Part shown: positions 1 through 60,657 of the stretch, piece by piece
Position numbering within the stretch: position 1 is the stretch's first letter
Layout of the letters: every line of letters begins with the position of its first letter
IMG/VR virus record: IMGVR_UViG_3300028895_000276
Location: 1-60,657 of that record
DNA: 60,657 nucleotides
Reading direction: 5' to 3' (one strand)
DNA from: a virus
Made by a program: the position numbers and the translations under genes
The notes under the pieces: generated by a model
Told to the model about the DNA's origin: nothing
Database searches by the model: none
What the model saw: only the letters and a program-made list of their open reading frames with translations

Positions 1-144
1 GAAAAGCTCTACCCACTCAGCGTCGACAAACTCGCGGTCGTAATGGTCGGAGAGATTCGAGACCACCGGGACCGAGCTTATGTCATAGGTCGCTAGCTCC
101 AACATCCAAATGTCGCCCGCCACCGCTATGTCTTGCGTAAGCGC
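1..144. repeat. Terminal direct repeat (circular overlap), left copy
   Basis: These 144 bases are identical to 60514-60657 at the other end. The repeat lies inside a coding sequence that reads continuously across the join, which is what a closed circular or circularly permuted assembly gives. The unique length is then 60,513 bp. A true short terminal repeat in the virion cannot be excluded from sequence alone. Confidence 0.95.
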
Positions 145-13010: not shown

Positions 13011-13541
13011 CTAGCCTCTAGCCTTGACAACAGCCTGCACATCGCGCTTGATGATCTTGCCATCCCTGCCCGTACCCGTCACCTCTGCTAGGTCCACGCC
13101 ACTGACCTCTGCGAACGAGGCCGCAGCGGGTGACACGTTGTATTCGACAGGCTCAACGGGAGTCGGCGCCGGCGCAACGACCTTCTCTTTCTGCGGCTCC
13201 TCGCTCGGTGTCGGTTCGGGTGATTTAACCACACTCTCTTCTGGCTGCGGCTGGACTGCCGGCAACGCTGCCCTCTCGAATTCGACCATCCCTGTGAGCC
13301 ATTCGGCGTCCACCGGGTCAGCCCAAAACATCATGTTGCGCTGGTTGCGCCCATACTTGTAGCGTTGGCCAGTTGGACCGTTGATAGTCTGGTTGCCGAT
13401 GTTGGCGCCCAGGTACTTGACCAACACGCTGCCGTCATCTCTAGACGCAGCTAGCGCCGCTACTGCAGGACTGGACCTAGTCCCAGTCTTGCTAACCACC
13501 ACCCGAGGTGTCGTCTTTCGCCTACCACCACAACAAGCCAT
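13011..13541 (-). CDS. Possible separately translated capsid-accessory protein (internal start)
   Basis: Within the long frame above, the ATG at 13541 has an AAGGGGAG ribosome site 6 bases upstream, far stronger than expected by chance. Translation there gives 176 residues: a basic start (MACCGGRRKTT), a conserved-looking segment GPTGQRYKYGRNQRNMMFWA, a Pro/Glu linker and an E3-binding-like domain. A codon TCG nine bases upstream of the site would be a TAG stop with one base change. This suggests two ancestral genes now fused in frame, with the second still able to start by itself. Confidence 0.5.
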   Translation of the reverse strand: MACCGGRRKTTPRVVVSKTGTRSSPAVAALAASRDDGSVLVKYLGANIGNQTINGPTGQRYKYGRNQRNMMFWADPVDAEWLTGMVEFERAALPAVQPQPEESVVKSPEPTPSEEPQKEKVVAPAPTPVEPVEYNVSPAAASFAEVSGVDLAEVTGTGRDGKIIKRDVQAVVKARG

Positions 13542-14840: not shown

Positions 14841-14859
14841 CAAACCCTCCGCTTTAACC

Positions 14860-14940
14860 GAAGGTACTTTCCTTGCACGTGACGGCATTCAGTGCTATGC
14901 TGGCCGCTATGTGTGCCGTCCTGTGCAAGGAAAATGCCTC
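14860..14940 (-). repeat. Dispersed palindromic element, copy E
   Basis: The most symmetric copy. On the plus strand GGTACTTTCCTTGC (14863-14876) with ACGTGACGGC pairs with GCCGTCCTGTGCAAGG and AAAATGCC (14915-14938), making a stem of about 24 bp with few mismatches. Each arm carries the CCTTGCAC-GGACGGC block of copies C and D. Flanking CTCCCGTTGC (14938-14947) is also shared. It lies between the major capsid hairpin and the glycosyltransferase start. Confidence 0.85.
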
Positions 14941-24794: not shown

Positions 24795-25633
24795 TCCTCC
24801 TGGTCGTATGGCAGCACTCGATACATGGTGTCGCGTAGGCACTCGCCGGTGACTCTCTCAACCACGCCGTCCTTCTCCAGCGTCCTCATGGCGCGTCTGA
24901 CATATGCCTTGTCGAACCCGAACCACTGCTGCAAAGGCCACGACACGTTGACTATGCGGCACGGCTTACCATCACCGATTAGCACAGCCAGCACCAACTC
25001 GGTGAGCGTGTGCACGTAGTTCAACTGTGCGTAGGGATGCTCTAGCGTCTTGCACGGTCTGCGCCACAGCACGTTCCACACCTCGTGTGCCGTCACCGTA
25101 TCGATGTCCTCCCTGCCCCACAGATAGGTCCTGCCGAAGATAGGGTAGTCAACTGCCTCAGGCTGCAGATCAGCGGTATCGAACACGGATGCTAGCAGCG
25201 CTGCACTCATCCGCTTACCGAGGAACCCGTGCCCGCGTAGCACGTCCGCGCCATCGCCACGCACCGGTACCCGGATCTCGTAGTTGCCGCGAGGGTTGGT
25301 GTCTCTGGTAAACAGCTTCTGCATGACCAACGTGTTGATCGCCCGGTGCGCCAGGTTCGATTCGTTAGGCGTGTCGTACTCTAGGGTGTGCTCCGATAGA
25401 CGACTCGTCCCGTTCAGCAACTTGGCTATGGCGTACACGTACGTGCGCCACAGCGCTATGCCCCTCGCCCCACCGCCGAACACCTGGTCGATGCTCCTGG
25501 TGGCTACGGTGGCCAGATCCAGCAACATAGTCTTGCGCATCGCGCTTATTGCCTGTGCCATCGCTACGTTCACTCCTGTCGTGTCTGCTTCCAGTCTCAC
25601 CCGTACATCATCAAGACCCATCGCTGTCGCCAT
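24791..25633 (-). CDS. Winged-helix protein, possible replication or regulatory protein
   Basis: A 280-residue protein, ATG 25633 behind GGAGGGAGAT, overlapping the prim-pol stop. The N-terminal half is helical (AMAQAISAMRKTMLLDLATV). The C-terminal 60 residues (WPLQQWFGFDKAYVRRAMRT, LEKDGVVERVTGECL) form a likely winged helix that binds DNA. Its neighbour is the prim-pol gene on the same transcript, so a role in replication initiation or in controlling the divergent early promoters is plausible. I do not recognise the family. Confidence 0.55.
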   Translation of the reverse strand: MATAMGLDDVRVRLEADTTGVNVAMAQAISAMRKTMLLDLATVATRSIDQVFGGGARGIALWRTYVYAIAKLLNGTSRLSEHTLEYDTPNESNLAHRAINTLVMQKLFTRDTNPRGNYEIRVPVRGDGADVLRGHGFLGKRMSAALLASVFDTADLQPEAVDYPIFGRTYLWGREDIDTVTAHEVWNVLWRRPCKTLEHPYAQLNYVHTLTELVLAVLIGDGKPCRIVNVSWPLQQWFGFDKAYVRRAMRTLEKDGVVERVTGECLRDTMYRVLPYDQED

Positions 25634-27254
25634 ATCTCCCTCCGTGTGCTTTGATCGCCTGCGACATAGTCTCGTGCACGTGCCGGCGTGCCTCGCTATC
25701 GCGCTTCCCTGACACGCCGAACCAGTCCGACAAGACCGTTATCACCTCGTCCACGTCCGCAGACCCTACCCAGCGCCACCGGGTGTACCGACCATTCCCA
25801 GCACACTCCACGGCTCCGGTCTCACGCAGACGCGCTAGATACCTCTTAAACGTCGCCCTACCGACCACCTCCTCACCCATCGTAGCTAGCAACTCCGATA
25901 CGCTGCCCCACTCGCCGGCTTGCGATAGCATCGCCGTCAGCACTCGGATGCCAGCCTTCCCCATCCCAGTGCTATAGACCAGATCGCTACGCTGCAGCTC
26001 TCCCAGGATATTGCGATTAAATGAACCCGTCCGTGGATGAGCCGAGAACGCACCGTCTCTTTCGGCTCTTTCGGAATCATCTTTTTCTGTTAAGTCTTTG
26101 AAAGAAAATGATTCTGCGTGAGCCGAAAGAAGGGTATCGACGGACAGCCTATACTCCCTGGACGTAACCATAGAACCTGCCTTGCTGGTCTCCAGGATGC
26201 CGGCGTCTAGTAGTCGCTGCACTGCGGACCATGCGCCCTTGTAGCTGCTGCCTATGTTCTCAGCTATCTGCCTAAGAGACTGACTGCGGCACAAACCGTT
26301 ACCGCTGAGACGATAGTCAGTAATGTCACCGGTCAGCAGCGCGATGAATGCAGCCTGCGAGTTGCGCCTCGCCACCGCACCCCAGCCGCCGAGGTGTGCC
26401 CAATCGATCAGGGACGCAGCAGCAGTGATCTCGTCTAGCCTTTCAGCTATTTCAACTCCGTTATGTTCGAGGAACCCGGCTGCGCCCTCGTACGTGCGCA
26501 TCAACCACGCATCCGCATCCGCAGCCGGCAGCGCCGCGTAGTGCCCATATCCGCCGTCTTGCCGCAGCAGCCTGCCAATATCGTCCAGCGGAACGCCGGT
26601 ACTGCAGAGACTGCAGACTATGCTGGCATCCGAAGCACTCGCGCCACCGCTGGTGGTCAGCCTGTATGCCGGATCCCCACGCAGCATCGTGTCTGCCCGT
26701 AGGCTTATGTACCAGGATGGTGCCGGCTGCAGACCAGGGAACACCCGCTGCACGTCGGCAAACTCCAGCATCGGGACATTGCGATAGTCAAGCATCGAGG
26801 ACCACATGTACTCTCTGCCCTCTGGATGCAAGCTAGGCGGTAGCAGCGCCGCCACCCCTCGCCCGAGGAACTCGAGGTCTTGCACGTCTGCCGAGTTGGA
26901 CGTAGCCGGCGCCGTGTCCAAACGCAGCATCGCTTTCACGCCGCCCGCGTGTGCACCCGTGCTTCCACTCACTATCTCTGGCAGCACGTCGAACCCGAGG
27001 TGGCACAACCGGCGCCATAGCTCGTCGCTAGCGGATGGGGAATCGGCATCGAACACCAACAGGTTGCCGCTGGCAGACCCGCACGCCACAGCCACATTGC
27101 TGTCGTCCGCGAAGACAGCCGGCAGCAGTGACGCCGGCATCGCTCTACCTAGCAGAGGTCGCGTGTGCACGCTGGGTCGCTTAGCACCCTTGAGGAACGG
27201 GATGGGACTGTAGCCGGCAGCTAACAGATCAGCCGCCGCTCGAAGACTGCTCAT
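25611..27254 (-). CDS. Prim-pol N-terminal domain protein with winged-helix C-terminus
   Basis: I choose the ATG at 27254 (AGGGGAG seven bases upstream); the longer frame covers the promoter. The 547-residue product opens like bifunctional DNA primase-polymerases: LLAAGYSPIPFLKGAKRPS, NVAVACGSASGNLLVFDADS with the DxD metal pair near residue 69, STGAHAGG for the nucleotide-binding histidine, and FLGRGVAALLPPSLHPEGRE (R..GG..v.PPS pattern). The rest holds winged-helix segments (for example SLRQIAENIGSSYKGAWSAV). It may prime or start DNA synthesis. It is transcribed from its own minus-strand promoter, away from the plus-strand replication genes. Confidence 0.7.
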   Translation of the reverse strand: MSSLRAAADLLAAGYSPIPFLKGAKRPSVHTRPLLGRAMPASLLPAVFADDSNVAVACGSASGNLLVFDADSPSASDELWRRLCHLGFDVLPEIVSGSTGAHAGGVKAMLRLDTAPATSNSADVQDLEFLGRGVAALLPPSLHPEGREYMWSSMLDYRNVPMLEFADVQRVFPGLQPAPSWYISLRADTMLRGDPAYRLTTSGGASASDASIVCSLCSTGVPLDDIGRLLRQDGGYGHYAALPAADADAWLMRTYEGAAGFLEHNGVEIAERLDEITAAASLIDWAHLGGWGAVARRNSQAAFIALLTGDITDYRLSGNGLCRSQSLRQIAENIGSSYKGAWSAVQRLLDAGILETSKAGSMVTSREYRLSVDTLLSAHAESFSFKDLTEKDDSERAERDGAFSAHPRTGSFNRNILGELQRSDLVYSTGMGKAGIRVLTAMLSQAGEWGSVSELLATMGEEVVGRATFKRYLARLRETGAVECAGNGRYTRWRWVGSADVDEVITVLSDWFGVSGKRDSEARRHVHETMSQAIKAHGGRYGDSDGS

Positions 27255-27291
27255 AGGCATCTCCCCTGGTACGCGTGGGTGTGGTCCTTTT

Positions 27292-27320
27292 ATTAAACCA
27301 CACGATGGCGCCGAGGTCAA
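27292..27320 (-). promoter_or_regulatory. Promoter for the prim-pol operon
   Basis: On the minus strand: TTGACC (27320-27315), 17 bases, then TGTGGTTTAAT with TTTAAT at 27297-27292. The TGTGG before the -10 is the same as in the plus-strand early promoters. It faces away from them, so the two arms are transcribed divergently from 27.3-27.5 kb. An ATGACA half-site lies at 27361-27366. Confidence 0.75.
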
Positions 27321-27368
27321 GTACCTGACAAACGACAAGGATACCTATCATATGCCGCACATGACATA

Positions 27369-28976: not shown

Positions 28977-28997
28977 TCCAGGGTGCCCGAGACATAG

Positions 28998-32262: not shown

Positions 32263-32274
32263 TAGCCACGAGAC

Positions 32275-32396
32275 GCCACGGAAGGCATCTCCCTTGCACG
32301 GAAGCGCACGCATACCCACGAACACACCCTCGATGCGACGGAGAGCAAGGGAGATACCACGGAGAGCAACGGAGACACATTCGGATCCTAGAGGAG
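32275..32396 (+). repeat. Dispersed palindromic element, copy A
   Basis: GGCATCTCCCTTGC (32284-32297) pairs with GCAAGGGAGATACC (32345-32358) with one mismatch. The 3' block GCAACGGAGACACATTCGGA matches copies B and C. The stretch CACACCCTCGATGCGACGGA in the loop region is shared with copy B. It fills the 141-base gap between the VWA gene and the next membrane gene. Confidence 0.85.
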
Positions 32397-32797: not shown

Positions 32798-32989
32798 ATG
32801 AATACAGACTACGACAACATGAGTGATGAGCAGTTCCTAGCAGCCGCCGTGAACTCCGAGGATCGCACCGCGTTTCTGGAAGCCCTCACCCCGGAGCAGC
32901 TTGATCGGATGACGGCGCTGATCGCCAAGAGATTCGCGAGTTTCAACAAGCTGGTATCCGCTATCGTGGCGCCGCTACTGGAAGAGTGA
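32798..32989 (+). CDS. Small helical protein
   Basis: A 63-residue helical protein starting at ATG 32798 (GGTGGTAGAG). Begins MNTDYDNMSDEQFLAAAVNS. The stop overlaps the ATG of the TOPRIM gene. Function unknown. Confidence 0.5.
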   Translation: MNTDYDNMSDEQFLAAAVNSEDRTAFLEALTPEQLDRMTALIAKRFASFNKLVSAIVAPLLEE

Positions 32990-33870
32990 TGGCACGCATC
33001 CAGTACGAGACACACAAGTTCAAGCAGAGCACCCTAGCTACCATCGCACAGGCTAACAGCATTATCACAGAGTACCACCAGCAAGACCTCACCCTGACCC
33101 TACGGCAACTCTACTACCAGCTAGTGGCGCGTGGTCTGCTGGACAACAAGCAGAAGGAGTATAAGCGCCTGAGCGCCGTACTGGTCAAGGCACGCCGTGC
33201 CGGTCTGGTTGACTGGAACGCCATCGTAGACCGCACACGTGCTACGTACTCGCGCACGCGATGGGACAACCCGGCACAGATCCTGGTCGCCGCCGTGGAC
33301 AGCTACCACGAGGACTGGTGGACACAGCAGCCCTACCGTGTCGAGGTATGGATAGAGAAGGACGCGCTAGCCGGCGTCATTGCGCAGCCGTGCCACGACT
33401 ACGACGCCCCCTACTTCCCTTGTCGAGGATACGCGAGCGACAGCGAGATGTGGGTATCAGCGCAGCGTCTGCTGCGGCATCAGAAAGCTGGGCAGATGCC
33501 TATCATCCTGCACATGGGTGACCACGATCCTAGCGGCATCGACATGACACGCGACATCGAAGAGCGGCTGTGGATGTTCGGCGTCAAAGCTGATGTGAAG
33601 CGCATCGCCCTCAACATGGACCAGGTTCGACAGTACAACCCGCCACCCAACCCAGCCAAGGTATCTGATAGCCGCTATGCTACCTACGTCAGACATTACG
33701 GACATCAGAGCTGGGAGCTGGACGCCCTCGACCCGGCAACGCTGCGGACACTAATCGAGCAGGAGATATCCAGCTACGTCGAAGGCGACAGGTGGGTCGA
33801 TGCCAAGGAGCACGAAGAGAGCAACCGAGACCTCATTCGCCAAGCAGCCATCGACATACAGGAGGAGTAA
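32989..33870 (+). CDS. TOPRIM-domain protein
   Basis: A 293-residue protein, ATG overlapping the previous TGA. The middle has a Toprim-type pattern: VEVWIEKDALAGVI near residue 122 gives the first glutamate, PCRGYASDSEM the turn, and ILHMGDHDPSGIDMTRDIEE near 180 the D-x-D. The pattern is like Spo11/TopoVI-A-type Toprim domains. A basic N-terminal segment (TLRQLYYQLVARGLLDNKQK) could be winged helix. It may nick or bind DNA. Proteins of this layout occur in other phages but I know of no proven role. Confidence 0.65.
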   Translation: MARIQYETHKFKQSTLATIAQANSIITEYHQQDLTLTLRQLYYQLVARGLLDNKQKEYKRLSAVLVKARRAGLVDWNAIVDRTRATYSRTRWDNPAQILVAAVDSYHEDWWTQQPYRVEVWIEKDALAGVIAQPCHDYDAPYFPCRGYASDSEMWVSAQRLLRHQKAGQMPIILHMGDHDPSGIDMTRDIEERLWMFGVKADVKRIALNMDQVRQYNPPPNPAKVSDSRYATYVRHYGHQSWELDALDPATLRTLIEQEISSYVEGDRWVDAKEHEESNRDLIRQAAIDIQEE

Positions 33871-37166: not shown

Positions 37167-37934
37167 ATGAACCTCACAGACAAGCAGACCATCCAGCGAG
37201 TGCTGAAGGCACTAGGCGTCAAGGCCGAGACCATCAAGAGCGACCTCGACGTCGATCGCCTAAGCGAGTACGACGGATCTATCGAGGATGCCGTGCTTAT
37301 CCTCATCCACAACGCGGCAATCAGGCTGCAAGCCGACGTGCCCGAGAGCATCAAGACCCGCGCCACAGTCAGCAGCAACGTGCTAGGGTTCAATATCGAG
37401 GTCACCGGTAACAGCGTCATCGACATCAAGGACGGGTACTACACAGCCATTCGCGCTATCACGGATCTGCGGCAGGAAGGTTTCCACGAGTTGGCCATGC
37501 GCGACGGCACGCGGGCACAACCCACGTACAGCGCAGAGCCGCCACCTATGCCCGAGGACAACCCGCCGCCACCAGCCGGCAGCCCACCACCCGCAGCCGG
37601 CAGCCAGCCTACAGGCAGCCCACCACCAGCCGGCAACGGCAACCCACCGATCCAAGGACCCACCGACATCAAGCGAGGTGTAGCTCAACTGCACGAGATC
37701 GGCGTCGATTCCGATGGTAAGGTCAAGTTCAAGGTGGGTGGGTTCAAGTGGCCGTTCCAGGAGGGACGTGGCGCCGAGATGGCAGCGTCGCTGTTCGACA
37801 CCGATCTTGGCTGGAACGCTAATCACTTCAAGCCTGGCGCCCACTACGGACCCGAGATCTGTGGCCCGCTGCACGTAGAGTGGGAGAAGCCTGGCAAGTA
37901 CTACAACGTGATACGCGTCTTCAAGCAGATCTGA
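37167..37934 (+). CDS. Hypothetical protein with proline-rich linker
   Basis: A 255-residue protein, ATG 37167 behind AGGAGACAGACGAG. Domains: an N-terminal helical/beta part to about residue 118, a linker of repeats on PPPAGSPPPAAGSQPTGSPP (about 125-165), and a C-terminal domain (VKFKVGGFKWPFQEGRGAEM, then GWNANHFKPGAHYGPEICGP). The C-terminal domain lies just before SSB and may act in replication or recombination, but nothing proves it. Confidence 0.55.
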   Translation: MNLTDKQTIQRVLKALGVKAETIKSDLDVDRLSEYDGSIEDAVLILIHNAAIRLQADVPESIKTRATVSSNVLGFNIEVTGNSVIDIKDGYYTAIRAITDLRQEGFHELAMRDGTRAQPTYSAEPPPMPEDNPPPPAGSPPPAAGSQPTGSPPPAGNGNPPIQGPTDIKRGVAQLHEIGVDSDGKVKFKVGGFKWPFQEGRGAEMAASLFDTDLGWNANHFKPGAHYGPEICGPLHVEWEKPGKYYNVIRVFKQI

Positions 37935-38062
37935 CGCACTAGAAGGTACTCTCCTTGCACAGGACGGCACCAACAGGCCCTAACACACCCTCGATGCGAC
38001 GGAGAGCAAGGGAGATACCACGGAGAGCAACGGAGACCCATTCGGATTCAGAACTACCCTAC
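37935..38062 (+). repeat. Dispersed palindromic element, copy B
   Basis: GGTACTCTCCTTGC (37945-37958) with ACAGGACGGC, and the partner arm GCAAGGGAGATACC (38006-38019; pairs with one bulge). CAACGGAGACCCATTCGGAT follows as in copies A and C. It fills the gap before the SSB ribosome site. Confidence 0.85.
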
Positions 38063-39274: not shown

Positions 39275-39573
39275 CCAGACGTATCGTACGCGTGGACGAG
39301 ATATCAGGAGACAAGCGCGATGCCAGCGTAGTACGCCGCATCACCGTACCGTTTACGCCGGCTGAACTCGGTATCCTAGGCCGGGCAGCGGATGAAGCTG
39401 GCACCAACTTCAAACACCTCGTCAGATGCCTGGTGATCACAGGACTGCTGCAGCACTTCAGCGAGATAGCTAACCCGCTGCAGCACATCCTCACCGACGA
39501 GACTGACGATACCATCCACGAAAGTCTGCTACTGCCCGAGGTGGCTGATGGCAACCAGGATCTTGATGGGTAG
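39271..39573 (+). CDS. Small protein, possible DNA-binding
   Basis: A 100-residue protein whose ATG overlaps the previous TGA. Begins MTRRIVRVDEISGDKRDASV, then VRRITVPFTPAELGILGRAA with the strand-helix-helix look of ribbon-helix-helix proteins (TVPFTPAELGILGRAADEAG). It precedes primase. Uncertain. Confidence 0.5.
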   Translation: MTRRIVRVDEISGDKRDASVVRRITVPFTPAELGILGRAADEAGTNFKHLVRCLVITGLLQHFSEIANPLQHILTDETDDTIHESLLLPEVADGNQDLDG

Positions 39574-40468
39574 TGCAGCCCTAGCTGCAGCAGCAGCCGA
39601 GGCCCTGCACACCGTCCTCAACCAGAAGACCGAGAGCGAGTATGCAGGACCGTGCCCCAAGTGCGGAGGTGAGGACCGGTTCGTCGTCTTCACGGATGGC
39701 AAACCGCGCTACTGGTGCAGGCAATGCGGGTACCGTGGTTTCCTGGACGGTATTCTAGAGATGACAGACGAGGACCGCGCCGCATACCAGGCAGCATCAG
39801 AAGAGCAGCGCGCCGCCGAAGCAGCCGCACGCGTCAAAGCCGAAGCCAAGATGGCCGAGAGCAAGGACCATCTGCAGTACTACAGTGCACTGCTAGCCAG
39901 ACCCGAACACATAGCCTACTGGACCGGTGAGGGCATCACCATGGATAGCATCCACAGATTCCAACTAGGATGGTGCGCTCACTGCCCCACCGACAGCGAA
40001 GGACGGTCCTCGTACACAATACCGATGTGGCGCGAAGGGAAGCTGGTTAACATTCGTCACCGACTGGAGACCACCGCATCTGGAGACCGCTACCGCCCAC
40101 ACGCCAAGCACCTACCGCGCAAGCTGCTGTTCAACCACGACGAGGCATTCGGCGCCAGTACCGGTATCATCCTGGAAGGCGCCAAGAAAGCCATCGTGCT
40201 AGGGCAACTTGGCTATGCTACGGTAGCCATCTGCGGCAAAAGCAACTACGACGAGAGGACCCTGGCACCGATACGGCACTGGGATCCAGCTTACGTGATG
40301 CTTGACCCGGATGCTACCGACACCGCGCTAGACATAGCCCGCATGTTGCACGGCAGAGGCTACCTAGTCAAGACCATCGTGAAGCCTGACGACCTCATCG
40401 TGCAGGGACACGGCAGCGCCGCCGATGTGGCACTGCTGCTGAAGTACGCTAGGAGGATCACACCATGA
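39548..40468 (+). CDS. DnaG/T7-type primase (zinc ribbon plus TOPRIM)
   Basis: A 306-residue primase, ATG overlapping the previous gene. Zinc ribbon near residues 33-60: PCPKCGGEDRFVVFTDGKPR then YWCRQCGYRG. The TOPRIM part near 210-270 has IILEGAKKAIVLG for the first acidic residue and DPAYVMLDPDATDTALDIA for D-x-D. It makes RNA primers for lagging-strand synthesis with the helicase encoded next. It is a stand-alone primase, not fused to helicase as in T7 gp4. Confidence 0.85.
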   Translation: MATRILMGSAALAAAAAEALHTVLNQKTESEYAGPCPKCGGEDRFVVFTDGKPRYWCRQCGYRGFLDGILEMTDEDRAAYQAASEEQRAAEAAARVKAEAKMAESKDHLQYYSALLARPEHIAYWTGEGITMDSIHRFQLGWCAHCPTDSEGRSSYTIPMWREGKLVNIRHRLETTASGDRYRPHAKHLPRKLLFNHDEAFGASTGIILEGAKKAIVLGQLGYATVAICGKSNYDERTLAPIRHWDPAYVMLDPDATDTALDIARMLHGRGYLVKTIVKPDDLIVQGHGSAADVALLLKYARRITP

Positions 40469-41988: not shown

Positions 41989-42013
41989 AGTGCACAAGCA
42001 AGGAGGGACGACC

Positions 42014-43825
42014 ATGAGCTACTACGCCTTAAGCTTCGAACCCGGTGACGTAGAAGAGCCTCTGACAGCAGAGGACATCGCCGCGATAGCTGCATCAGAT
42101 ATGGTGGCTATCGACACGGAGACCACCGGGCTGGACTACGACAGCAGGATCCTTGGTATTAGCGTAGCGTGGCGCGTGCCCGGTGCTATGCACAGTGCCT
42201 ACCTGAACCTTAGTCACCCGCTGAGCCTGTTTTCAGCACGCATCGACGACGACATCGTCGCGGACGTGATGAGAGCGGTCTTTGAACCGGACCGACCGGT
42301 GGCTCTGCTAAACGCCGTCTTCGACATAGAGAAGCTGTCACGCTGGGGTCACCTGGAGCTGCCTATCGAATACCCGTACCTCTACGACGCACAGATCCTG
42401 GCGCGTTGGCTGATGTCCTTCGAGAAGTTCCAAGGCGTCAGCATGGAGAAGCTAGTTAGCCGGCGCCTAGGCGGCATGCCGCCGTGGATGAGCAGCATGA
42501 AGAAGATGAGGTCCAAGCTAGGGACGCTACCAGCGGAGAAGGTCAGCCCGTACGCCCGCGCCGACGCCGAGTTCACCTTGATGCTGGTCGAGGATCTGAT
42601 GCGCGAGGGTAGACTGCTCTACGACGACGAAGTCCTAGACACGATGCTGGAACGCGAGAGCCGGTTTTTGTGGTTACTCACCCGGATCCAGCGACACGGT
42701 ATCCTGCTGGACCTCGAAGAGATCCACGAGCGGTCCGTACGAATGACCGCAGACATGCAAGAGCTGCGAGCGTTCCTGAAGCAGAACGGCATTCACAACC
42801 CGGACAGCCGCGATAGCGTTCTCAAGGGTCTACCTATGCACATCGTGGCAGGACTACCGCAGACCGACAACGGCAACTACAAGATCGACAGTGCTGCCCT
42901 AGCCGGAAAAGGACCGGTGGCCGAGGCAGTATTGCGCTATCGCAGTTTAGGCAAGGCCGTTGGTACGTGGCTGGACGGTTTCCGCAGCAAGGTAGCCAGC
43001 GATGGCCGGCTGCATCCGCGATTCCGCGCTGCCGGCACGGTCTCTGGCCGGCTGTCCTGCAACGAGCCGAATTTGCAGGCTGTCCCACTAGCGGACCGTG
43101 GCGCCGCGTTCGGTAGCCTGATGGGTATATTCAAGGCAGCACCTGGATTCTCGCTGTTGGCTGCAGACTACGAGCAAGCCGAGCTTCGGACGTGCGCCGC
43201 GTATGCTAAGTCTACCGCTATGGCCAACGCATTCAAGAACGGAGAGGATATTCACTCGTTTGCTGCTAGTCTGATGTGGCCGGACTCGGAGATCAACTAC
43301 GAGCTACGGCAGCTAGGCAAACGTTGCAACTACTGCACCACCTACGGTGGCGGGTACCGTGCGCTGGCCGAGAACACTGGCATACCTGAGAGCGAAGCCA
43401 AGATCGTCATCAACACGTACCGTCGTGCCTTCCCTGAACTGGTAGCAGCACAGAATCGCGCCGGTGACGTATGGGAGCAGCGAGGGTACATCACGATGTG
43501 GAATGGCCGCCGGCACTACAAGTCACCTAACGACGGCAGCTACAAAGCCTTCAACCAGGTCATGCAGGGTGACGTAGCTGAGCTGGTCAAGGACGCTATG
43601 CTGAGTGTGGACGCCCGGTTCGCAGAGATGGGTGTTGGCAACATCGTGCTACAGATCCACGACAGCATCGAAGTCGAGGTACAGACCGACGCCGTCGAGG
43701 ACGTGAAAGCGATGATGCGTAAGGAGATGGTAGCCGCCGCACCGCTGCACATCATGAACCGCACTGAGCCGCCTATCACCATGGACGTTGGGTTCGAGAA
43801 CTGGTACCCCGAGGAGGACGAATGA
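42014..43825 (+). CDS. polA: Family A DNA polymerase with 3'-5' exonuclease (DpoZ candidate)
   Basis: ATG 42014 behind AAGGAGGGACGACC; 603 residues. Exonuclease motif VAIDTETTGLDYDSRILGIS near residue 35. Polymerase parts: TVSGRLSCNEPNLQAVP near 345, motif A LLAADYEQAELRTCAAYA near 385, motif B RCNYCTTYGGGYRALA near 437, motif C QIHDSIEVEV near 547. The usual Glu after HD in motif C is Ser here. It lies 1 kb upstream of purZ; family A polymerases beside purZ are known as DpoZ and prefer dZTP. The specificity cannot be read from sequence. No thumb insertion or fusion is seen. Confidence 0.88.
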   Translation: MSYYALSFEPGDVEEPLTAEDIAAIAASDMVAIDTETTGLDYDSRILGISVAWRVPGAMHSAYLNLSHPLSLFSARIDDDIVADVMRAVFEPDRPVALLNAVFDIEKLSRWGHLELPIEYPYLYDAQILARWLMSFEKFQGVSMEKLVSRRLGGMPPWMSSMKKMRSKLGTLPAEKVSPYARADAEFTLMLVEDLMREGRLLYDDEVLDTMLERESRFLWLLTRIQRHGILLDLEEIHERSVRMTADMQELRAFLKQNGIHNPDSRDSVLKGLPMHIVAGLPQTDNGNYKIDSAALAGKGPVAEAVLRYRSLGKAVGTWLDGFRSKVASDGRLHPRFRAAGTVSGRLSCNEPNLQAVPLADRGAAFGSLMGIFKAAPGFSLLAADYEQAELRTCAAYAKSTAMANAFKNGEDIHSFAASLMWPDSEINYELRQLGKRCNYCTTYGGGYRALAENTGIPESEAKIVINTYRRAFPELVAAQNRAGDVWEQRGYITMWNGRRHYKSPNDGSYKAFNQVMQGDVAELVKDAMLSVDARFAEMGVGNIVLQIHDSIEVEVQTDAVEDVKAMMRKEMVAAAPLHIMNRTEPPITMDVGFENWYPEEDE

Positions 43826-44448
43826 CCGAAGAGAAAGAGCCGTATCTGGACCACCCCAGCGCCACAGAGCAAGACGCTACCTGGAGGAACACATCCAGCG
43901 TGGATTGGCTGTCGCCACCCGAGGTGCTAGCAGCCGCCCGCAACGTCATGGGCAAGTTCGATCTCGATCCAGCCAGCAGCGAGAAGGCTAACCAGTTCGT
44001 GCGCGCCGAGGTATTCTTCGGACAGGACAACGGCACGGACGGTCTGCAGATGCCCTGGCGTGGCAGGGTCTGGTTGAATCCACCATACGGTAAGTACAAA
44101 CCGGGTGTCAGCCGTGCCGGCATGTGGGGCAAGAAGCTACTCGAGGAGTACATCGCAGGCAAGGTAATAGAAGCGTGCCTGTACGTCAAGACCGCCGTTG
44201 GCTATAAGTGGTTCGACAAACTACTGCAGCAGGCCGATGCCGTCTGTTTCCTGTGGGGTCTGCCCGAGCACCTGAACCTCGTAGACAACCGCTACGGGAA
44301 GTGCAAGATGGGCAGAGCAGTGATGTACTACGGGTCGCACCCTGCACAGTTCGTGCAGTGCTTTAGGCACCTAGGCTATTTCCGGTTCGACGCCGCCGAC
44401 CGCACGGATTACCACGTCCTACGCGCTGTTGGTATGGCCAAATTCTAA
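43822..44448 (+). CDS. Phage Dam-like N6-adenine methyltransferase
   Basis: A 208-residue protein whose ATG overlaps the polymerase stop. It fits the phage Dam family: SSVDWLSPPEVLAAARNVMG, FDLDPASSEKANQF (the D-x-A-type SAM site), and the catalytic NPPYG in RVWLNPPYGKYKPG near residue 90. It would methylate the N6 amino group of adenine in a target site. In a genome with 2-aminoadenine the base still has an N6 amino group, so activity remains possible; the protein might instead act on host DNA. Confidence 0.7.
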   Translation: MTEEKEPYLDHPSATEQDATWRNTSSVDWLSPPEVLAAARNVMGKFDLDPASSEKANQFVRAEVFFGQDNGTDGLQMPWRGRVWLNPPYGKYKPGVSRAGMWGKKLLEEYIAGKVIEACLYVKTAVGYKWFDKLLQQADAVCFLWGLPEHLNLVDNRYGKCKMGRAVMYYGSHPAQFVQCFRHLGYFRFDAADRTDYHVLRAVGMAKF

Positions 44449-44462
44449 CGGAAGGAGACACC

Positions 44463-44786
44463 ATGAAGGACTCGTTGCAAGCGAAGGTCGGATCCGTGCT
44501 GTTCATGTTGGCGATGATTGGGTTGACCATCGGCGCCGCTGCCTACTTCGGCAATCTGCTGATCGAGGAGATAGTCAGCAACCGCGCCGAGACCATCCTG
44601 GCGAACGGTGAGCTGGCTATCGATGAAGCCATCGCCCGCAGCATCGACGCCGGCACAGCCGCTTCGATGGCAGACACCAGGCTAGCCACCGCTATGTCCT
44701 GGTACCCGTTCGTCATCGGAGTAACTGCCGTGTTCGCTGTCGTTTTCTACGTCCTACTGACAGCGCCGGCACGGAAGAACAGTTAA
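44463..44786 (+). CDS. Small membrane protein
   Basis: A 107-residue protein, ATG 44463 behind GGAAGGAGACACC. Two membrane segments (residues 10-31 and 78-100) around a helical loop. Lies between the methyltransferase and purZ. Unknown role. Confidence 0.55.
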   Translation: MKDSLQAKVGSVLFMLAMIGLTIGAAAYFGNLLIEEIVSNRAETILANGELAIDEAIARSIDAGTAASMADTRLATAMSWYPFVIGVTAVFAVVFYVLLTAPARKNS

Positions 44787-44876: not shown

Positions 44877-45974
44877 ATGTTACAGCAGGTATGGAGTATC
44901 GTTGGCGGTCAGGCCGGCAGCGAAGGCAAAGGCAAGGCAGCCGGGTATCTGGCAGCCGCTCTCAAGCCCGAGGTGGTAGCGTGCGCGTTCACCGCCAACG
45001 CTGGCCACACAGCGTATGACCGGGACGGCAACAAGATCGTCGTGCACACCATCCCGATTGGCGCGTTCTTCGGCGCAAAGCTGGTCGTCATCGGACCGGG
45101 TGCTGCCATCCGCACGTGGCGCCTGATCGAGGAGATGGAAGCGTTGCACCGCGTGAACCCGGACTGCAAGGTGCTGCTAGACGAGAACGTGGTACTCATC
45201 TCACCGGAGCAGGTAGCGTGGGAAGCCGAGACGATGAAGAAGATCTCGTCCACGTGCCAAGGCGTGGGACGCGCACAGGCCGACAGGCTACTGCGGCAGG
45301 GTCGCGCAGACACCGCTAGCAACCACGCACCCACCTTCATCGAAGGTCTCACAGTAGGCAGCGCCGCCGAGGTGTTGCAGGTGCGCTACGATTCCGGTGA
45401 CAAGATCCAGATCGAAGGTTGTCAAGGTATCGACATCGACCTACTACACGGGATCCAGTACCCGTACTGCACCAGCCGCAGCATCACCGCCGCAGCCGTG
45501 GCTAACGACTGTGGATTCCCTGCAACCCGCGTGGACAGCGTGGTCTCGGTGTTCCGCACCTACCCTATCCGCGTGGGCAACGTGGTTGAGGAAGGCAAGC
45601 AGGTTGGATGGAGCGGACCTATCCCACGGGACAGCGACGAGTTGACGTGGGACGAGATGACCAAGCTGGCCGGCAGCCCCGAGAGACTAGAGGAGCGAAC
45701 CACCGTCACCAAGAAGGTACGCCGCATCTTCACGTGGAGCCGGCAGCGCTACATCGTCTCGCAGTGGCTGAACAACGCCACGCACGCGTGGGTTAACTTC
45801 GGTGACTACCTCGACTGGAACATCCACGGCGTGTGCGGCAACACCACAGAGCTGCATAGCATCAGCAAGACCGCTGCGCAGTGGGTTGACACCGAGATCG
45901 GCATGTCACACCTGCTGGCACTCGGTACCGGTCCTGGCATGGATGACGTGATCGCGCATCCTAGACTGAGGTAG
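44877..45974 (+). CDS. purZ: PurZ, 2-aminoadenylosuccinate (dSMP) synthetase
   Basis: A 365-residue PurA-family protein, ATG 44877 behind AGGAGGAAGCG. PurA joins IMP and Asp; PurZ joins dGMP and Asp, giving the precursor of 2-amino-dAMP. The N-terminal loop reads GGQAGSEGKGK (residues 10-20), where PurA has GAQWGDEGKGK: the catalytic Asp is Ser15, the change that marks PurZ. The second catalytic residue stays (NAGHT, His44). The Asp-binding loop reads TTVTKKVRRIFTW, unlike the GRRRR of PurA. Length (PurA about 430) fits PurZ. Next genes encode PurB and a MazG-like protein. This is the first step of Z-DNA synthesis by known family biochemistry; activity here is inferred. Confidence 0.88.
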   Translation: MLQQVWSIVGGQAGSEGKGKAAGYLAAALKPEVVACAFTANAGHTAYDRDGNKIVVHTIPIGAFFGAKLVVIGPGAAIRTWRLIEEMEALHRVNPDCKVLLDENVVLISPEQVAWEAETMKKISSTCQGVGRAQADRLLRQGRADTASNHAPTFIEGLTVGSAAEVLQVRYDSGDKIQIEGCQGIDIDLLHGIQYPYCTSRSITAAAVANDCGFPATRVDSVVSVFRTYPIRVGNVVEEGKQVGWSGPIPRDSDELTWDEMTKLAGSPERLEERTTVTKKVRRIFTWSRQRYIVSQWLNNATHAWVNFGDYLDWNIHGVCGNTTELHSISKTAAQWVDTEIGMSHLLALGTGPGMDDVIAHPRLR

Positions 45975-45976
45975 CG

Positions 45977-47116
45977 ATGATCGAGCGCTACAACAACGCA
46001 GACATCGCTGGTATCTGGAGCACCACGAGCCAGTACCAGCGATGGCTGGACATCGAGAGGACTTGGATACGCTGCTTACTGGACATCGATCCACCGATGG
46101 TACCAGGAGAGGTGGTTATTCACGACATCCGCGTCAATACGTACGAGATCGAGCACTTCGAGACCGTGACACACCACGATGTGCGAGCATTCCTGATGTG
46201 GCTAGAGCGTGAGCTGCCGTCGCCGCTACGCAGATACCTACACCTAGGACTAACAAGCTCTGATGTCGTAGACACCGGCACAGCCCTAGCAGTGCGCGGT
46301 AGCGTGCGCGTGTTGGATGATATCTACAGCCGGCTGATACACTACCTGTACAAGAGTGCAGCCAGCGCGCCGCCGCTGCTACCATCCTACTCACACGGGC
46401 AGCCGGCACGCAGCATCTCGAGCGCCCACTTCTACCGGCGTCTAGAGATACCCATAGGTAGAGCGTTCTCAGAGGTGAGCGTATCGCAGCTGCCCATAGC
46501 CATCGGTGGTCCTACTGGCGAATGGTCAAGCTTACCACCAGGAGCCACGTCCACGCTGCTGCAAGCACGCTCATCTTTCAACGTCATCATGTCCACCCGC
46601 TACGGCGTAAAGAACGTAGCGCCGAGATCGCAGGCTCTGGACCGCTCTTACTACACGAAGCTAGCACAGGCACTCAGCAGGATGTCCAACGCACTGTCAC
46701 AGGCTGCCCTGCACCTGAGGTTCTACCACCTACGCGGTATGCTGCGGATAGGCGGTACAGCCTCATCATCAGCGATGCCGAACAAGAGCAACCCAGTACG
46801 CCTAGAGAAGGTGTGCGGCATGGCACGCGTAGCGCGAGGGTACGCTCTGATGGCCGGCTGCAACCAGGACACGTGGGAGCTACGCGACATCAGCAACTCG
46901 TCAGTAGAAAGGGTCTGGATGCCGGATCTGTTCCACACGGTGGCACACCAGGTTAGCACGCTCTGCAACGTGATCGCCAAGATGCAGTGGGTCGAGCCGG
47001 CAATCGACGCTGAGCTAGCAGCCTTCCCCAATGACCCATTCGGAAAGATGGTGGCGTTGCAAGCCACCGGGATGCACTACAACAAAGCATGGCGCACAGC
47101 CAAGGAGGACACATGA
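45977..47116 (+). CDS. purB: Adenylosuccinate lyase
   Basis: A 379-residue PurB, 2 bases after purZ. It splits fumarate from adenylosuccinate-type intermediates, here likely the 2-amino deoxy form made by PurZ. Signs: VTHHDVRAFLMWLERELP near residue 66 (His of the acid-base pair), LGLTSSDVVDTG near 92, and the signature SSSAMPNKSNPVRLEK near 263 with the catalytic serine. Slightly shorter than bacterial PurB (430-460). Most Z-phages use host PurB; having its own may make the pathway independent of host supply. Confidence 0.88.
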   Translation: MIERYNNADIAGIWSTTSQYQRWLDIERTWIRCLLDIDPPMVPGEVVIHDIRVNTYEIEHFETVTHHDVRAFLMWLERELPSPLRRYLHLGLTSSDVVDTGTALAVRGSVRVLDDIYSRLIHYLYKSAASAPPLLPSYSHGQPARSISSAHFYRRLEIPIGRAFSEVSVSQLPIAIGGPTGEWSSLPPGATSTLLQARSSFNVIMSTRYGVKNVAPRSQALDRSYYTKLAQALSRMSNALSQAALHLRFYHLRGMLRIGGTASSSAMPNKSNPVRLEKVCGMARVARGYALMAGCNQDTWELRDISNSSVERVWMPDLFHTVAHQVSTLCNVIAKMQWVEPAIDAELAAFPNDPFGKMVALQATGMHYNKAWRTAKEDT

Positions 47117-47601
47117 GCACTGACTACAGCCGGCTGGGAGTGGTACCTATTGCCGACGTCACACAGGACCACGTGCAAGGATACGCCCGCGAGATGACAC
47201 CCAGCGCCGGCATCGTTCCGCTACACGACATCGAGCGCGTCATCGCGAGTATGTTTCTCAAGGTCAGGGACGGCGCTATGGACCGGATGCCCGGTACCCT
47301 GTCATTGTACGATGACGCGATGGCTATAGCGCCTCGCGTGCCCGGTATCGCGGACAAGCAACACGCTTTGGCCGAGGTACGCGCACGCATCAAAGAGCGA
47401 GGCGAGCAGTACGGGTGTGCCGTCCTCAACCTGATGGGTACCTGGTACACTAGCTCAAACGTGGCTGCCAAGCTACTGCGCGTGTGGGATCACTGGACAC
47501 AGCACAAGATCCTACTGACCGACGAAGTGCTAGACATCGCTGGGTACTGCATCTTGAACATGGCGATACTCACCCACAGCATGGCCGAGGTCGGACAATG
47601 A
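47113..47601 (+). CDS. MazG-like nucleotide pyrophosphatase candidate (MazZ role)
   Basis: ATG 47113 overlaps the PurB stop; the frame opens a little earlier without a site. The 162 residues end in a helical segment RIKERGEQYGCAVLNLMGTW, then VAAKLLRVWDHW and TDEVLDIAGYCILNMAIL. The pattern 'R..eYG..l........a.KL.R......D...DIAGY' matches phage MazG-like proteins, whose acidic DE..D set binds Mg2+. In Z-phages MazZ hydrolyses dGTP to dGMP, the PurZ substrate. Position beside purZ and purB supports this, but the family match is mine by eye. Confidence 0.55.
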   Translation: MSTDYSRLGVVPIADVTQDHVQGYAREMTPSAGIVPLHDIERVIASMFLKVRDGAMDRMPGTLSLYDDAMAIAPRVPGIADKQHALAEVRARIKERGEQYGCAVLNLMGTWYTSSNVAAKLLRVWDHWTQHKILLTDEVLDIAGYCILNMAILTHSMAEVGQ

Positions 47602-48458
47602 ACAGCATCTACCTAGCCGGTCCTCTGGACTACGCCAACCTAGGCGACAAGGCAGCGTGGCGCGAACGGTTCGCAGCTCTGCTGGGTCAGCACTCTCCCA
47701 TGTCCGCACAGCTACCGCTGCTCTACGATCCTAGCAAGCCTTTCACCAACCCGCTGTCCAGCCCGGACACGCTGGTTTCCGTGAACATGGCCGCACTGGA
47801 AGCAAGCTCTATCGTGATAGCACTGGTTATCTCGACCGAGCCGTCGTGGGGCACACCCATCGAGATATGGGAAGCACGCCGGCAAGGCAAGCCCGTGCTG
47901 TTGTGGGTACCGAACGAGGACTGCCCGCCCTACCTCATCGCAGACACTGAACGGTATCTGACGCTGAACGCCATCGCCGCTAGGACCGCTGAGATGTTGT
48001 ACCAGGACGCAGATACCGACCTCGTCACCACGTCTCAAGACCTACTGTACGAGAACGGTGGTATCCAGTTCCCCAAGATCTCTGGTGATGTAGGGTATGA
48101 CGTCGAGGTGATGTCACAGACCAGGCTACTGCCGCACGCCATCACCAAGGTGCCATTGGGATTCAACGGTGAGCCACTACGCGTGAAGACACCGCGTGGT
48201 ACGTGGTTCTCGATGTTCCCACGCAGCAGCATGGTCGACAAGGGTCTAATGGTCGTGAAGACCGTCTGCGACGAAGGGTACACCGGTGATCTGTTCATGT
48301 TCGTGTACAACACCACCAACAAGCTGCTGATGCTGCTACCCGGACAGAGGATCGGGCAGATCGTGCTGTTCGATAGCGTCACGCCGCAGATGCGCCACGT
48401 GTCTACACTACCGCGCACCGCACGTGGCAGTAACGGTTTCGGCAGCACAGGGACGTGA
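47598..48458 (+). CDS. Deoxyribosyltransferase-like / dUTPase fusion
   Basis: ATG 47598 overlaps the previous TGA; 286 residues. N-terminal part (1-145) resembles nucleoside 2-deoxyribosyltransferases: MNSIYLAGPLDYANLGDKAA, then VSVNMAALEASSIVIALV, TEPSWGTPIEIWEARRQGKP with the catalytic-type Glu. The C-terminal part (about 158-286) is a dUTPase with its five motifs: SGDVGYDVEV, PRSSM, VCDEGYTGDLF, PGQRIGQIVL and RGSNGFGSTGT. dUTPase gives dUMP; the first domain could swap bases or recycle nucleotides. The fusion in a purine operon is unusual. The domain order is clear; activity of the first domain is uncertain. Confidence 0.75.
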   Translation: MNSIYLAGPLDYANLGDKAAWRERFAALLGQHSPMSAQLPLLYDPSKPFTNPLSSPDTLVSVNMAALEASSIVIALVISTEPSWGTPIEIWEARRQGKPVLLWVPNEDCPPYLIADTERYLTLNAIAARTAEMLYQDADTDLVTTSQDLLYENGGIQFPKISGDVGYDVEVMSQTRLLPHAITKVPLGFNGEPLRVKTPRGTWFSMFPRSSMVDKGLMVVKTVCDEGYTGDLFMFVYNTTNKLLMLLPGQRIGQIVLFDSVTPQMRHVSTLPRTARGSNGFGSTGT

Positions 48459-48898
48459 CCGTGAATAGGGACAGCCTACGCATCATCCGCACCACACCAA
48501 ACCCGAAAGACTACGCGTTGCACTGGTCAACCGCGTGGAACAGACACGTGAAACAGCGGTCAGTGATGCCAGAACCGATCTGCACCGACACCACCGGTGA
48601 GCTGGAGTTCGCCTACGCAGACCTCGACCGGCACTGGCGCTTCGACTGGTGTATACCCGAAGCCAAGGTCGCAGTAGAGGTGGACGGCGGCAAGATGATC
48701 GTACGCCGCACGCGTAGCGGCAAGGTCGTGCCAGTAGGCCGGCACATACAGGACGACGACGCGTGGAAGCTAAACAGCGCCGCGTCCCTAGGGTGGTTGG
48801 TATTCACCTTCACTCCGGCAATGCTGCGCAAAGACCCTGTCCGCTGCGTCGAGATGGTCGAGGAGACCGTGCTACAACGACTAGCGGGTTTGGTTTAA
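48455..48898 (+). CDS. Vsr/DUF559-like endonuclease-fold protein
   Basis: A 147-residue protein starting at GTG 48455 that overlaps the previous stop. It has an endonuclease-like pattern: RFDWCIPEAKVAVEVDGGKM (D...E-x-D type active site), RHIQDDDAWKLNSAASLGWL and VFTFTPAMLRKDP, with the D-then-E-x-D spaced like PD-(D/E)XK enzymes. It may cut mismatched or branched DNA or the host genome. Last gene of the nucleotide operon. Confidence 0.6.
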   Translation: MTVNRDSLRIIRTTPNPKDYALHWSTAWNRHVKQRSVMPEPICTDTTGELEFAYADLDRHWRFDWCIPEAKVAVEVDGGKMIVRRTRSGKVVPVGRHIQDDDAWKLNSAASLGWLVFTFTPAMLRKDPVRCVEMVEETVLQRLAGLV

Positions 48899-49548: not shown

Positions 49549-49552
49549 ACGC

Positions 49553-49680
49553 ACGGGAAGGTATTCTCCTTGCACGGGACGGCGTCTATAGGGGCCGACA
49601 TAGCCCTAGGTACCACGAAGAGCAAGGAGACTATCTCCCGTTGCAACGGAGACCCATTCGGATTCAAAACCACCCCTGCA
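49553..49680 (+). repeat. Dispersed palindromic element, copy C
   Basis: GGTATTCTCCTTGC (49560-49573) with ACGGGACGGC, loop, partner GCAAGGAGACTATC (49622-49635), then CTCCCGTTGCAACGGAGACC and CATTCGGATTC. Shares the CTCCCGTTGC block with D and E and the CATTCGGATTC block with B. It lies before the final membrane gene. Confidence 0.85.
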
Positions 49681-60030: not shown

Positions 60031-60657
60031 CTACCGCTTCCAGCCCCAATACTTGAAGACCCAGCCCCAGATATACACCGCGGAACCGGTCAGAGTGTCA
60101 GAGCCCAAATCTGCATACCTTGCGAATTGGAATGTTAGGATGTCCCCGAGTTCTGGCGTTGACGTGTCAAGCGTAATGGGGAAGAACCTTTGGTACTTGC
60201 CGAAGTCCGCAGCACCACCCCATGCCTCTGTCCCCAGAGACCCGCCACCAGCTTGCGCCGAAGCAGTCGCCTCTTTCCACCTCACCACACCAGTGAATCC
60301 GTAAAGATCGCCGGTTGCCACCAATGCCCCAAGGTAACCACAAGACCAGGCCAGAGGGTCCGTGTCGTCAATGTAGTTTTGTGGGACGTGACAAACGCCC
60401 TCAACGAAATTCCGCACAGAGTCAGGACACACACCGACCGGGTCGCCTGCAGAATCCTCGCCTATGTATTGCGTTGTGGTGCTTGTGTACTCTTCGACAG
60501 CCGCAGCAGGCACGAAAAGCTCTACCCACTCAGCGTCGACAAACTCGCGGTCGTAATGGTCGGAGAGATTCGAGACCACCGGGACCGAGCTTATGTCATA
60601 GGTCGCTAGCTCCAACATCCAAATGTCGCCCGCCACCGCTATGTCTTGCGTAAGCGC
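60031..60657 (-). CDS. Virion/baseplate-type protein, 3' part of the join-spanning gene
   Basis: C-terminal part of the gene starting at 621. Frame enters at the right edge (60657) and ends at the stop 60031. In this part a beta domain ends YIWGWVFKYWGWKR, comparable to the HVLGFVVKY/HVLGFVVEY ends of the 631-1806 repeats. A GTG at 60636 is not the start; the frame is open through the circular join to 621. Confidence 0.75.
   Translation of the reverse strand, partial: ALTQDIAVAGDIWMLELATYDISSVPVVSNLSDHYDREFVDAEWVELFVPAAAVEEYTSTTTQYIGEDSAGDPVGVCPDSVRNFVEGVCHVPQNYIDDTDPLAWSCGYLGALVATGDLYGFTGVVRWKEATASAQAGGGSLGTEAWGGAADFGKYQRFFPITLDTSTPELGDILTFQFARYADLGSDTLTGSAVYIWGWVFKYWGWKR
60514..60657. repeat. 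Terminal direct repeat, right copy
   Basis: Exact copy of bases 1-144. Confidence 0.95.

What the first reader, a model, noticed from the sequence alone, without database searches (positions are those of the whole stretch)
44877..45974. PurA homologue carries the PurZ-type Ser in place of the catalytic Asp: probable Z-genome (2-aminoadenine) phage
The loop reads GGQAGSEGKGK where PurA enzymes have G-D-E-G-K-G-K; the Asp is Ser15. His44 in NAGHT remains. In described Z-phages (S-2L, phiVC8 and relatives) this change defines PurZ, which acts on dGMP. The Asp-binding loop also lacks the PurA arginine run. The window therefore likely belongs to a phage with A fully replaced by Z, which resists many restriction enzymes.
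Basis: partly seen in the sequence, partly recalled or inferred. Interest (0 to 1): 0.9.

Follow-up and report, generated by a model that had tools for sequence, protein, structure and literature searches.

The report
Phage making its own 2-aminoadenine nucleotides
This complete phage genome carries a back-to-back set of genes predicted to turn dGMP into 2-aminoadenine deoxynucleotides, including a lyase step that published Z-phage work assigns to the host, so its DNA probably contains 2-aminoadenine, although full replacement of adenine is not shown.

Summary
In detail: ORF 44877-45974 (365 aa) is a PurA-family enzyme with Ser15 in the P-loop (GGQAGSEGKGK) and His44. Trees place it, on a long branch, in the phage PurZ clade (100/97 and 100/98 support) and not with PurZ0 (AU p 0.012).

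Ser alone is not diagnostic: 279 cellular genome loci matched a Ser P-loop PurZ pattern, and 78 of the 79 examined carry Ser. The context carries the case. PurZ is followed 2 nt later by a PurB-like adenylosuccinate lyase, an unknown gene, and a nucleoside-deoxyribosyltransferase/dUTPase fusion that keeps the four key residues of the Z-phage enzyme DmtZ. Published work gives the lyase step to the host.

The genome is a mix: a PurZ-clade synthetase with the accessory set of PurZ0 phages. Its nucleotide-donor residue is Asp310, as in GTP-using PurA/PurZ0, not the Asn/Gln of ATP-using PurZ. No DatZ, DUF550 or DUF5664 was found, although a 144-nt terminal repeat suggests the genome is complete. 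Its DNA polymerase keeps the Tyr that is Phe in characterised Z-selective polymerases.

A Z-nucleotide pathway is well supported. Complete replacement of A by Z is plausible but unproven.

The parts
44877..45974 (+). PurZ-clade adenylosuccinate-synthetase homologue (Ser15, His44, Thr275, Asp310, insertion after Val233)
45977..47116 (+). PurB-like adenylosuccinate lyase, 2 nt after purZ; HDV, TSSDVVDT, HGQ, SSAMPxKxNP and RDISxSSVER motifs kept
   Evidence: TIGR00928 E 3e-51; leave-window-out HMM E 5e-36; motif table and tree
47113..47601 (+). Small protein of unknown family (start at 47113, strong SD), overlapping PurB and DmtZ-DutZ by ATGA; MazG-like motifs only by eye
   Evidence: no significant match, low-confidence all-helical model
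47598..48458 (+). DmtZ-DutZ-like fusion: nucleoside deoxyribosyltransferase-family domain (Y5, D11, N63, E89) + dUTPase-family domain
41990..43825 (+). Family-A DNA polymerase with 3'-5' exonuclease; helix-O Tyr452 where DpoZ has Phe
43822..44448 (+). Dam-type N6-adenine methyltransferase homologue (NPPY motif), ATGA overlap with polymerase gene
   Evidence: PF05869 E 5e-11, phrog_111 E 1.5e-22
44463..44786 (+). Small predicted membrane protein between methyltransferase and purZ
   Evidence: hydrophobic stretches in the sequence
48455..48898 (+). phrog_503 family protein, last gene overlapping the operon (GTGA overlap)
1..144 (.). 144-nt exact direct terminal repeat, left copy (right copy 60514-60657): apparently complete genome

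Best explanation
An operon that makes 2-aminoadenine (Z) deoxynucleotides for the phage genome. Inferred steps: PurZ joins dGMP and aspartate to give dSMP, probably using GTP because of Asp310. The adjacent phage PurB-like lyase releases fumarate to give dZMP, a step that other studied Z-phages leave to the host. Host kinases then make dZTP. The DutZ-like half of the fusion cuts dATP and dGTP to dAMP and dGMP, which lowers A and feeds PurZ. The DmtZ-like half breaks dAMP down to adenine, or moves its deoxyribose-phosphate to free Z. The phage polymerase inserts Z opposite T. What is shown here is the gene set, its tight operon layout, clade membership and conservation of the known catalytic residues. 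All activities, and Z in the virion DNA, are inferred.
For: The PurZ clade is supported with and without the insertion and diagnostic sites, and nearly all dGMP-pocket and phosphate-tail residues of S-2L PurZ are kept. PurB-like lyase 2 nt downstream with active-site motifs. The NDT domain has all four residues whose mutation hit DmtZ (Y6, D12, N77, E103 of Ghobes; PMC12884076). Best full-length hits of the fusion are DmtZ-DutZ proteins of PurZ0 phages. In the sampled loci, 45 of 47 DmtZ-type ORFs lie in loci with PurZ, and 25 of 74 viral PurB loci have a Ser-type PurZ within 10 kb, eight of them within about 100 nt or overlapping. ATGA overlaps couple PurB, the 47113 gene and DmtZ-DutZ.
Against: Missing DatZ, DUF550 and DUF5664. 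Polymerase without the DpoZ Phe, although Hiyaa-like phages with the same accessory set also have Tyr. Ser P-loop PurA homologues exist in cells without phage Z kits. PurB is divergent (28% identity at best; MPHKRNP is MPNKSNP, RTHG is YSHG). The branches leading to the window's proteins are long. A Dam-type methyltransferase nearby suggests adenine may still be present. The PurB scan used a query made from PurZ-phage lyases, which biases the co-occurrence count upward.
Confidence: 0.7

Rival explanations
1. The pathway makes Z nucleotides, but the genome is only partly substituted, or dZ serves another purpose (for example upsetting host nucleotide pools), so the phage is not a full Z-genome phage.
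For: No DatZ, MazZ or DUF5664 in an apparently complete genome; polymerase lacks the DpoZ Phe; Dam-type methyltransferase in the same gene run.
Against: DmtZ-DutZ-type enzymes remove dATP/dAMP in PurZ0 phages (PMC12884076) and the fusion is present with all key residues; S-2L replaces A without a Z-selective polymerase (PMC8065100 abstract).
Confidence: 0.17
2. Z is only a precursor: the base is modified further, for example N6-methylated by the nearby Dam-type enzyme, or a different aspartate-derived purine is made.
For: Methyltransferase gene overlaps the polymerase gene and lies one gene from purZ.
Against: Dam-type enzymes are common in phages; no paper found here ties one to Z. The adjacent PurB argues that the succinyl group is removed.
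Confidence: 0.07
3. It is a diverged PurA/PurB pair that boosts AMP synthesis from IMP, an ordinary auxiliary metabolic pair. Such phage pairs exist: L328, L345 and L359 carry Asp-type PurA near PurB.
For: Asp-type purA-purB pairs occur in IMG/VR; Asp310 is PurA-like.
Against: Those PurA keep Asp in the P-loop and branch outside the Ser-type group; the window enzyme has Ser15, Thr275 and the PurZ insertion, lies in the PurZ clade, and is followed by DmtZ-DutZ.
Confidence: 0.06

Closest known systems
PurZ of S-2L, phiVC8 and SH-Ab 15497 Z-phages
   Same: Ser P-loop, dGMP pocket residues, Thr loop, insertion after Val241 (S-2L, SH-Ab), N-F adenine-stacking pair, same clade
   Different: Asp310 where these have Gln/Asn; only about 32-37% identity; phage-encoded PurB next door; no DatZ/MazZ; polymerase not DpoZ-like at helix O
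PurZ0 phages: Gordonia phages Ghobes and Archimedes, Streptomyces phage Hiyaa, Arthrobacter phage Wayne
   Same: DmtZ and DutZ (fused as in Wayne and Hiyaa); PurB-like gene in Ghobes, Archimedes and Hiyaa; Asp at the donor position; polymerase nearest this side (weak support)
   Different: Synthetase is in the PurZ clade, not PurZ0; PurB directly follows purZ rather than lying kilobases away; no DUF5664
Uncultivated PurZ0 phages with purB next to purZ (e.g. L303, L333, L298, L299)
   Same: PurB and PurZ within 2-40 nt, with an NDT-dUTPase fusion nearby
   Different: Their synthetase is PurZ0-type without the insertion; in some the lyase is divergently transcribed, in L303 and L333 it precedes purZ
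Bacillus phage vB_BpsS-140
   Same: PurZ-clade synthetase with GGQxGSEGKGK loop; separate DmtZ-like gene with all key residues; annotated dut
   Different: Asn at the donor position; no PurB found; genes not in one operon

Membership tests
PurZ (2-aminoadenylosuccinate synthetase, ATP-type) | Ser in place of catalytic Asp of PurA, His kept | tested here: met
   Ser15, His44
PurZ (2-aminoadenylosuccinate synthetase, ATP-type) | Falls in the phage PurZ clade | tested here: met
   100/97, 99, 100/98 with insertion and diagnostic sites masked; long branch
PurZ (2-aminoadenylosuccinate synthetase, ATP-type) | Asn/Gln at the position that reads the donor base (S-2L Q308, phiVC8 N297) | tested here: not met
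   Asp310, as in PurA and PurZ0
PurZ (2-aminoadenylosuccinate synthetase, ATP-type) | NCBIfam NF038379 curated cut-off (300 bits) | tested here: not met
   220.8 bits; matched, but below cut-off
PurZ (2-aminoadenylosuccinate synthetase, ATP-type) | Makes dSMP from dGMP | not testable with these tools
   needs enzyme assay
PurZ0 | Falls in the PurZ0 clade | tested here: not met
   AU test of window + PurZ0 as one clade p 0.012; PurZ0 monophyletic without it
PurZ0 | GTP-type donor pocket Asp | tested here: met
   Asp310; GTP use itself not tested
PurB (adenylosuccinate lyase) | Active-site motifs of the family | tested here: met
   HDV, TSSD, HG, SSAMPxKxNP, RD..SSVER kept with substitutions around them
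PurB (adenylosuccinate lyase) | NCBIfam TIGR00928 curated cut-off (326 bits) | tested here: not met
   174.5 bits, E 3e-51
DmtZ-DutZ | NDT domain with Tyr6, Asp12, Asn77, Glu103 fused to a dUTPase domain | tested here: met
   Y5, D11, N63, E89 in window; dUTPase motifs kept
DpoZ (Z-selective PolA) | Phe replacing the helix-O Tyr (F459 of phiVC8) | tested here: not met
   Tyr452
Z-genome phage of the S-2L/phiVC8 type | DatZ and MazZ/DUF550 present | tested here: not met
   no match with HMMs that find them in 47 and 41 of 80 PurZ loci
Z-genome phage | Adenine replaced by 2-aminoadenine in virion DNA | not testable with these tools
   no virions or raw data

The most novel reading that the evidence does not exclude
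A lineage of Z-phage near the base of the PurZ clade that carries out dGMP to dZMP entirely by itself, with a GTP-driven PurZ and its own PurB, excludes adenine by DmtZ-DutZ instead of DatZ, copies Z with a polymerase lacking the known Z-selectivity mark, and may methylate Z or residual A with its Dam-type enzyme.
Probability: 0.2. Interest if true: 0.7.

Novelty: new variant of a known kind. Interest (0 to 1): 0.55.

Why it matters
Recent papers state that Z-phages rely on the host lyase to turn dSMP into dZMP (PMC12884076, PMC12783734). This genome has a PurB-like gene 2 nt behind purZ, and the survey shows lyase genes near purZ are a recurrent part of the PurZ0-type cassette. It also breaks the reported split between PurZ phages (DatZ/MazZ) and PurZ0 phages (DutZ/DmtZ), and carries a donor residue of the older GTP-using type. 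That makes it a test case for how the Z pathway was assembled, and a compact cassette to try for making Z-DNA with less host help.

Tried and rejected
MazG/NMAD identity for the 47113-47601 gene: motifs look similar by eye to a helical domain found between purZ and dmtZ in PurZ0 phages, but HMM, profile-profile and structure searches gave nothing significant. A claim that the window is the only PurZ-clade phage with DmtZ was dropped after Bacillus phage vB_BpsS-140 showed a separate DmtZ-like gene. PurB adjacency is not unique: PurZ0 phages L303, L333, L298 and L299 have it too. Lack of the DpoZ Phe was considered as proof against Z-DNA and rejected as such, because Hiyaa-type phages with the full PurZ0 kit also have Tyr. 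Host inference failed: the terminase has no phage match and the one well-conserved gene (32986-33870) is shared by phages of many hosts. No tRNA or Rfam hits. Single-protein scans of IMG/VR found only one near-identical contig. Two structure jobs gave no useful fold match.

Full report
Observation. The ORF at 44877-45974 is real: 365 codons, ATG start, AGGAGG upstream. It matches the PurZ models (NCBIfam E 2e-65, below the curated cut-off; PHROG 1211 E 5e-59) and the S-2L PurZ structure best.

Ser is not enough. A scan of genome contigs with the PurZ alignment found 279 cellular relatives matching a Ser-type P-loop pattern; of the 79 loci kept, all but one (truncated) show Ser. In the tree of a subset of 30 they branch outside the phage PurZ clade apart from two, and the 79 loci mostly lack Z-kit neighbours. 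The case therefore rests on the clade and on the neighbourhood.

Clade. In four trees the window protein falls in the phage PurZ clade (SH-aLRT 99; 100/97; 99; 100/98 with the insertion, Ser15 and Asp310 masked). Grouping it with PurZ0 is rejected (AU p 0.012). Its branch is long (about 1.4-1.65), so its place inside the clade is open. The highest identities are 36-37% (L020 and L024 from IMG/VR among them); Bacillus phage vB_BpsS-140 is the nearest named phage by path.

Pocket. Aligned to S-2L PurZ (numbering from PMC8342488), the dGMP pocket residues are kept (Gly14, Ser15, Asn41, Ala42, Thr126, Gln183, Tyr197, Cys198, Thr199, Arg232, Val233), Ala13 and Ser124 being the differences; the PurZ insertion after Val233 is present and Thr275 is PurZ-type. 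The adenine-stacking Asn307-Phe308 is PurZ-type, but the specificity position (Gln308 in S-2L, Asn297 in phiVC8) is Asp310, as in PurA, PurZ0 and the cellular Ser-type enzymes. From established knowledge, this Asp (Asp333 of E. coli PurA) reads guanine, so GTP is the predicted donor. The statement that PurZ0 uses GTP is from my own knowledge (Tong et al. 2023, not held); PMC12884076 words the preferences the other way round in one sentence, against its own introduction, which gives ATP for PurZ. A minority of other PurZ-clade members have Asp here too, e.g. L026 and L046.

Operon. The order is polymerase, Dam-type methyltransferase, small membrane protein, PurZ, PurB-like lyase, unknown gene, NDT-dUTPase fusion, phrog_503 protein. 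PurB starts 2 nt after the purZ stop, and the next three junctions overlap by ATGA or GTGA. The PurB assignment survives a model built without the window (E 5e-36), and its catalytic motifs are kept with some neighbouring changes. The fusion's best full-length relatives are the DmtZ-DutZ proteins of PurZ0 phages. It keeps Tyr, Asp, Asn and Glu at the four positions shown essential or important in DmtZ (PMC12884076). In a dUTPase tree ordinary phage dUTPases form a supported clade (97) that excludes it, but the tree is short on columns.

Survey. Of 80 PurZ loci related to the window, 47 have DatZ and 41 DUF550 within 10 kb, 1 has PurB and none has an NDT; whole-record search found PurB in 4 of 24 viral records. 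Starting from PurB, 25 of 74 viral loci have a Ser-type PurZ nearby and 4 an Asp-type PurA; in the window and eight of the Ser-type loci the two genes lie within about 100 nt or overlap. Starting from the fusion, almost every DmtZ-type ORF (45 of 47) lies in a locus with PurZ, nearly always of PurZ0 type. So PurZ0-PurB-DmtZ-DutZ is a recurrent cassette, and the window carries that accessory set with a PurZ-clade synthetase. The only other PurZ-clade phage with a DmtZ-like gene found is vB_BpsS-140, where it is separate.

Completeness and gaps. A 144-nt exact direct terminal repeat suggests the genome is complete, so the lack of DatZ, DUF550 and DUF5664 is informative within the sensitivity of the models. 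The polymerase lies beside the PurZ0-phage polymerases with weak support (85) and keeps Tyr where both characterised DpoZ groups have Phe. Hiyaa-type phages also have Tyr, so this does not settle the matter.

Verdict. A phage-encoded route from dGMP to dZMP is the best reading. Known: gene identity, order, clade and residues. Inferred: every activity, GTP use, and Z in the DNA. Full replacement of adenine should be left open until virion nucleosides are measured.

Noticed in passing
L134:9995-12090, L121:5397-8517, L175:9398-11694, L178:8025-11023: Cellular Ser-type PurA homologues sit in two conserved cassettes: a short form (54 loci) beside a DCD-like protein (33) and an RNase H/AAA_18 kinase-like protein (31); a ~545-aa form (25 loci) fused to an AAA_18 kinase-like domain, followed by DUF7002 (24) and often an M78 peptidase/DarG-like protein (17). 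They look like unnamed nucleotide-modifying or defence systems.
   Followed up: partly
L299:8241-8837, L225:8903-9925, L004:10145-11875 and others (alignment A4): A conserved small helical domain (K-x-x-EYG...GKxxR...DDTxxDxGVY) recurs between purZ0 and dmtZ in PurZ0 phages; no Pfam family and no PDB fold match.
   Followed up: partly
L303, L333, L298, L299, L306, L309, L323, L327: Uncultivated PurZ0 phages with purB directly beside or overlapping purZ, in tandem or divergent.
   Followed up: yes
L008:2546-3019 (-): Bacillus phage vB_BpsS-140 gene annotated hypothetical is a DmtZ-like NDT with all five tested DmtZ residues.
   Followed up: partly
1-144 and 60514-60657: 144-nt exact direct terminal repeat, so the 60657-base record looks like a complete genome.
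   Followed up: yes
32272-32386, 37933-38047, 49549-49605: Long intergenic direct repeats ahead of plus-strand genes (one just before the SSB gene), possibly shared regulatory regions; another 174-nt family at 28993, 29950 and 34038.
   Followed up: no
25611-27338 (-), 39548-40468 (+): Two primase-like genes: a primase-like protein on the minus strand and a zinc-ribbon primase near DnaB on the plus strand.
   Followed up: no
32986-33870: Topoisomerase-like gene about 50% identical across phages of unrelated hosts (Pseudomonas, Listeria, Curtobacterium), unlike the rest of this highly divergent genome.
   Followed up: no
13011-14888 (-): Protein with a GtrB-like glycosyltransferase domain among the minus-strand genes.
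   Followed up: no
L006, L007 (IMGVR_UViG_3300017990_000040): A second, shorter IMG/VR contig is 99.94% identical to the window over at least 21 kb.
   Followed up: yes
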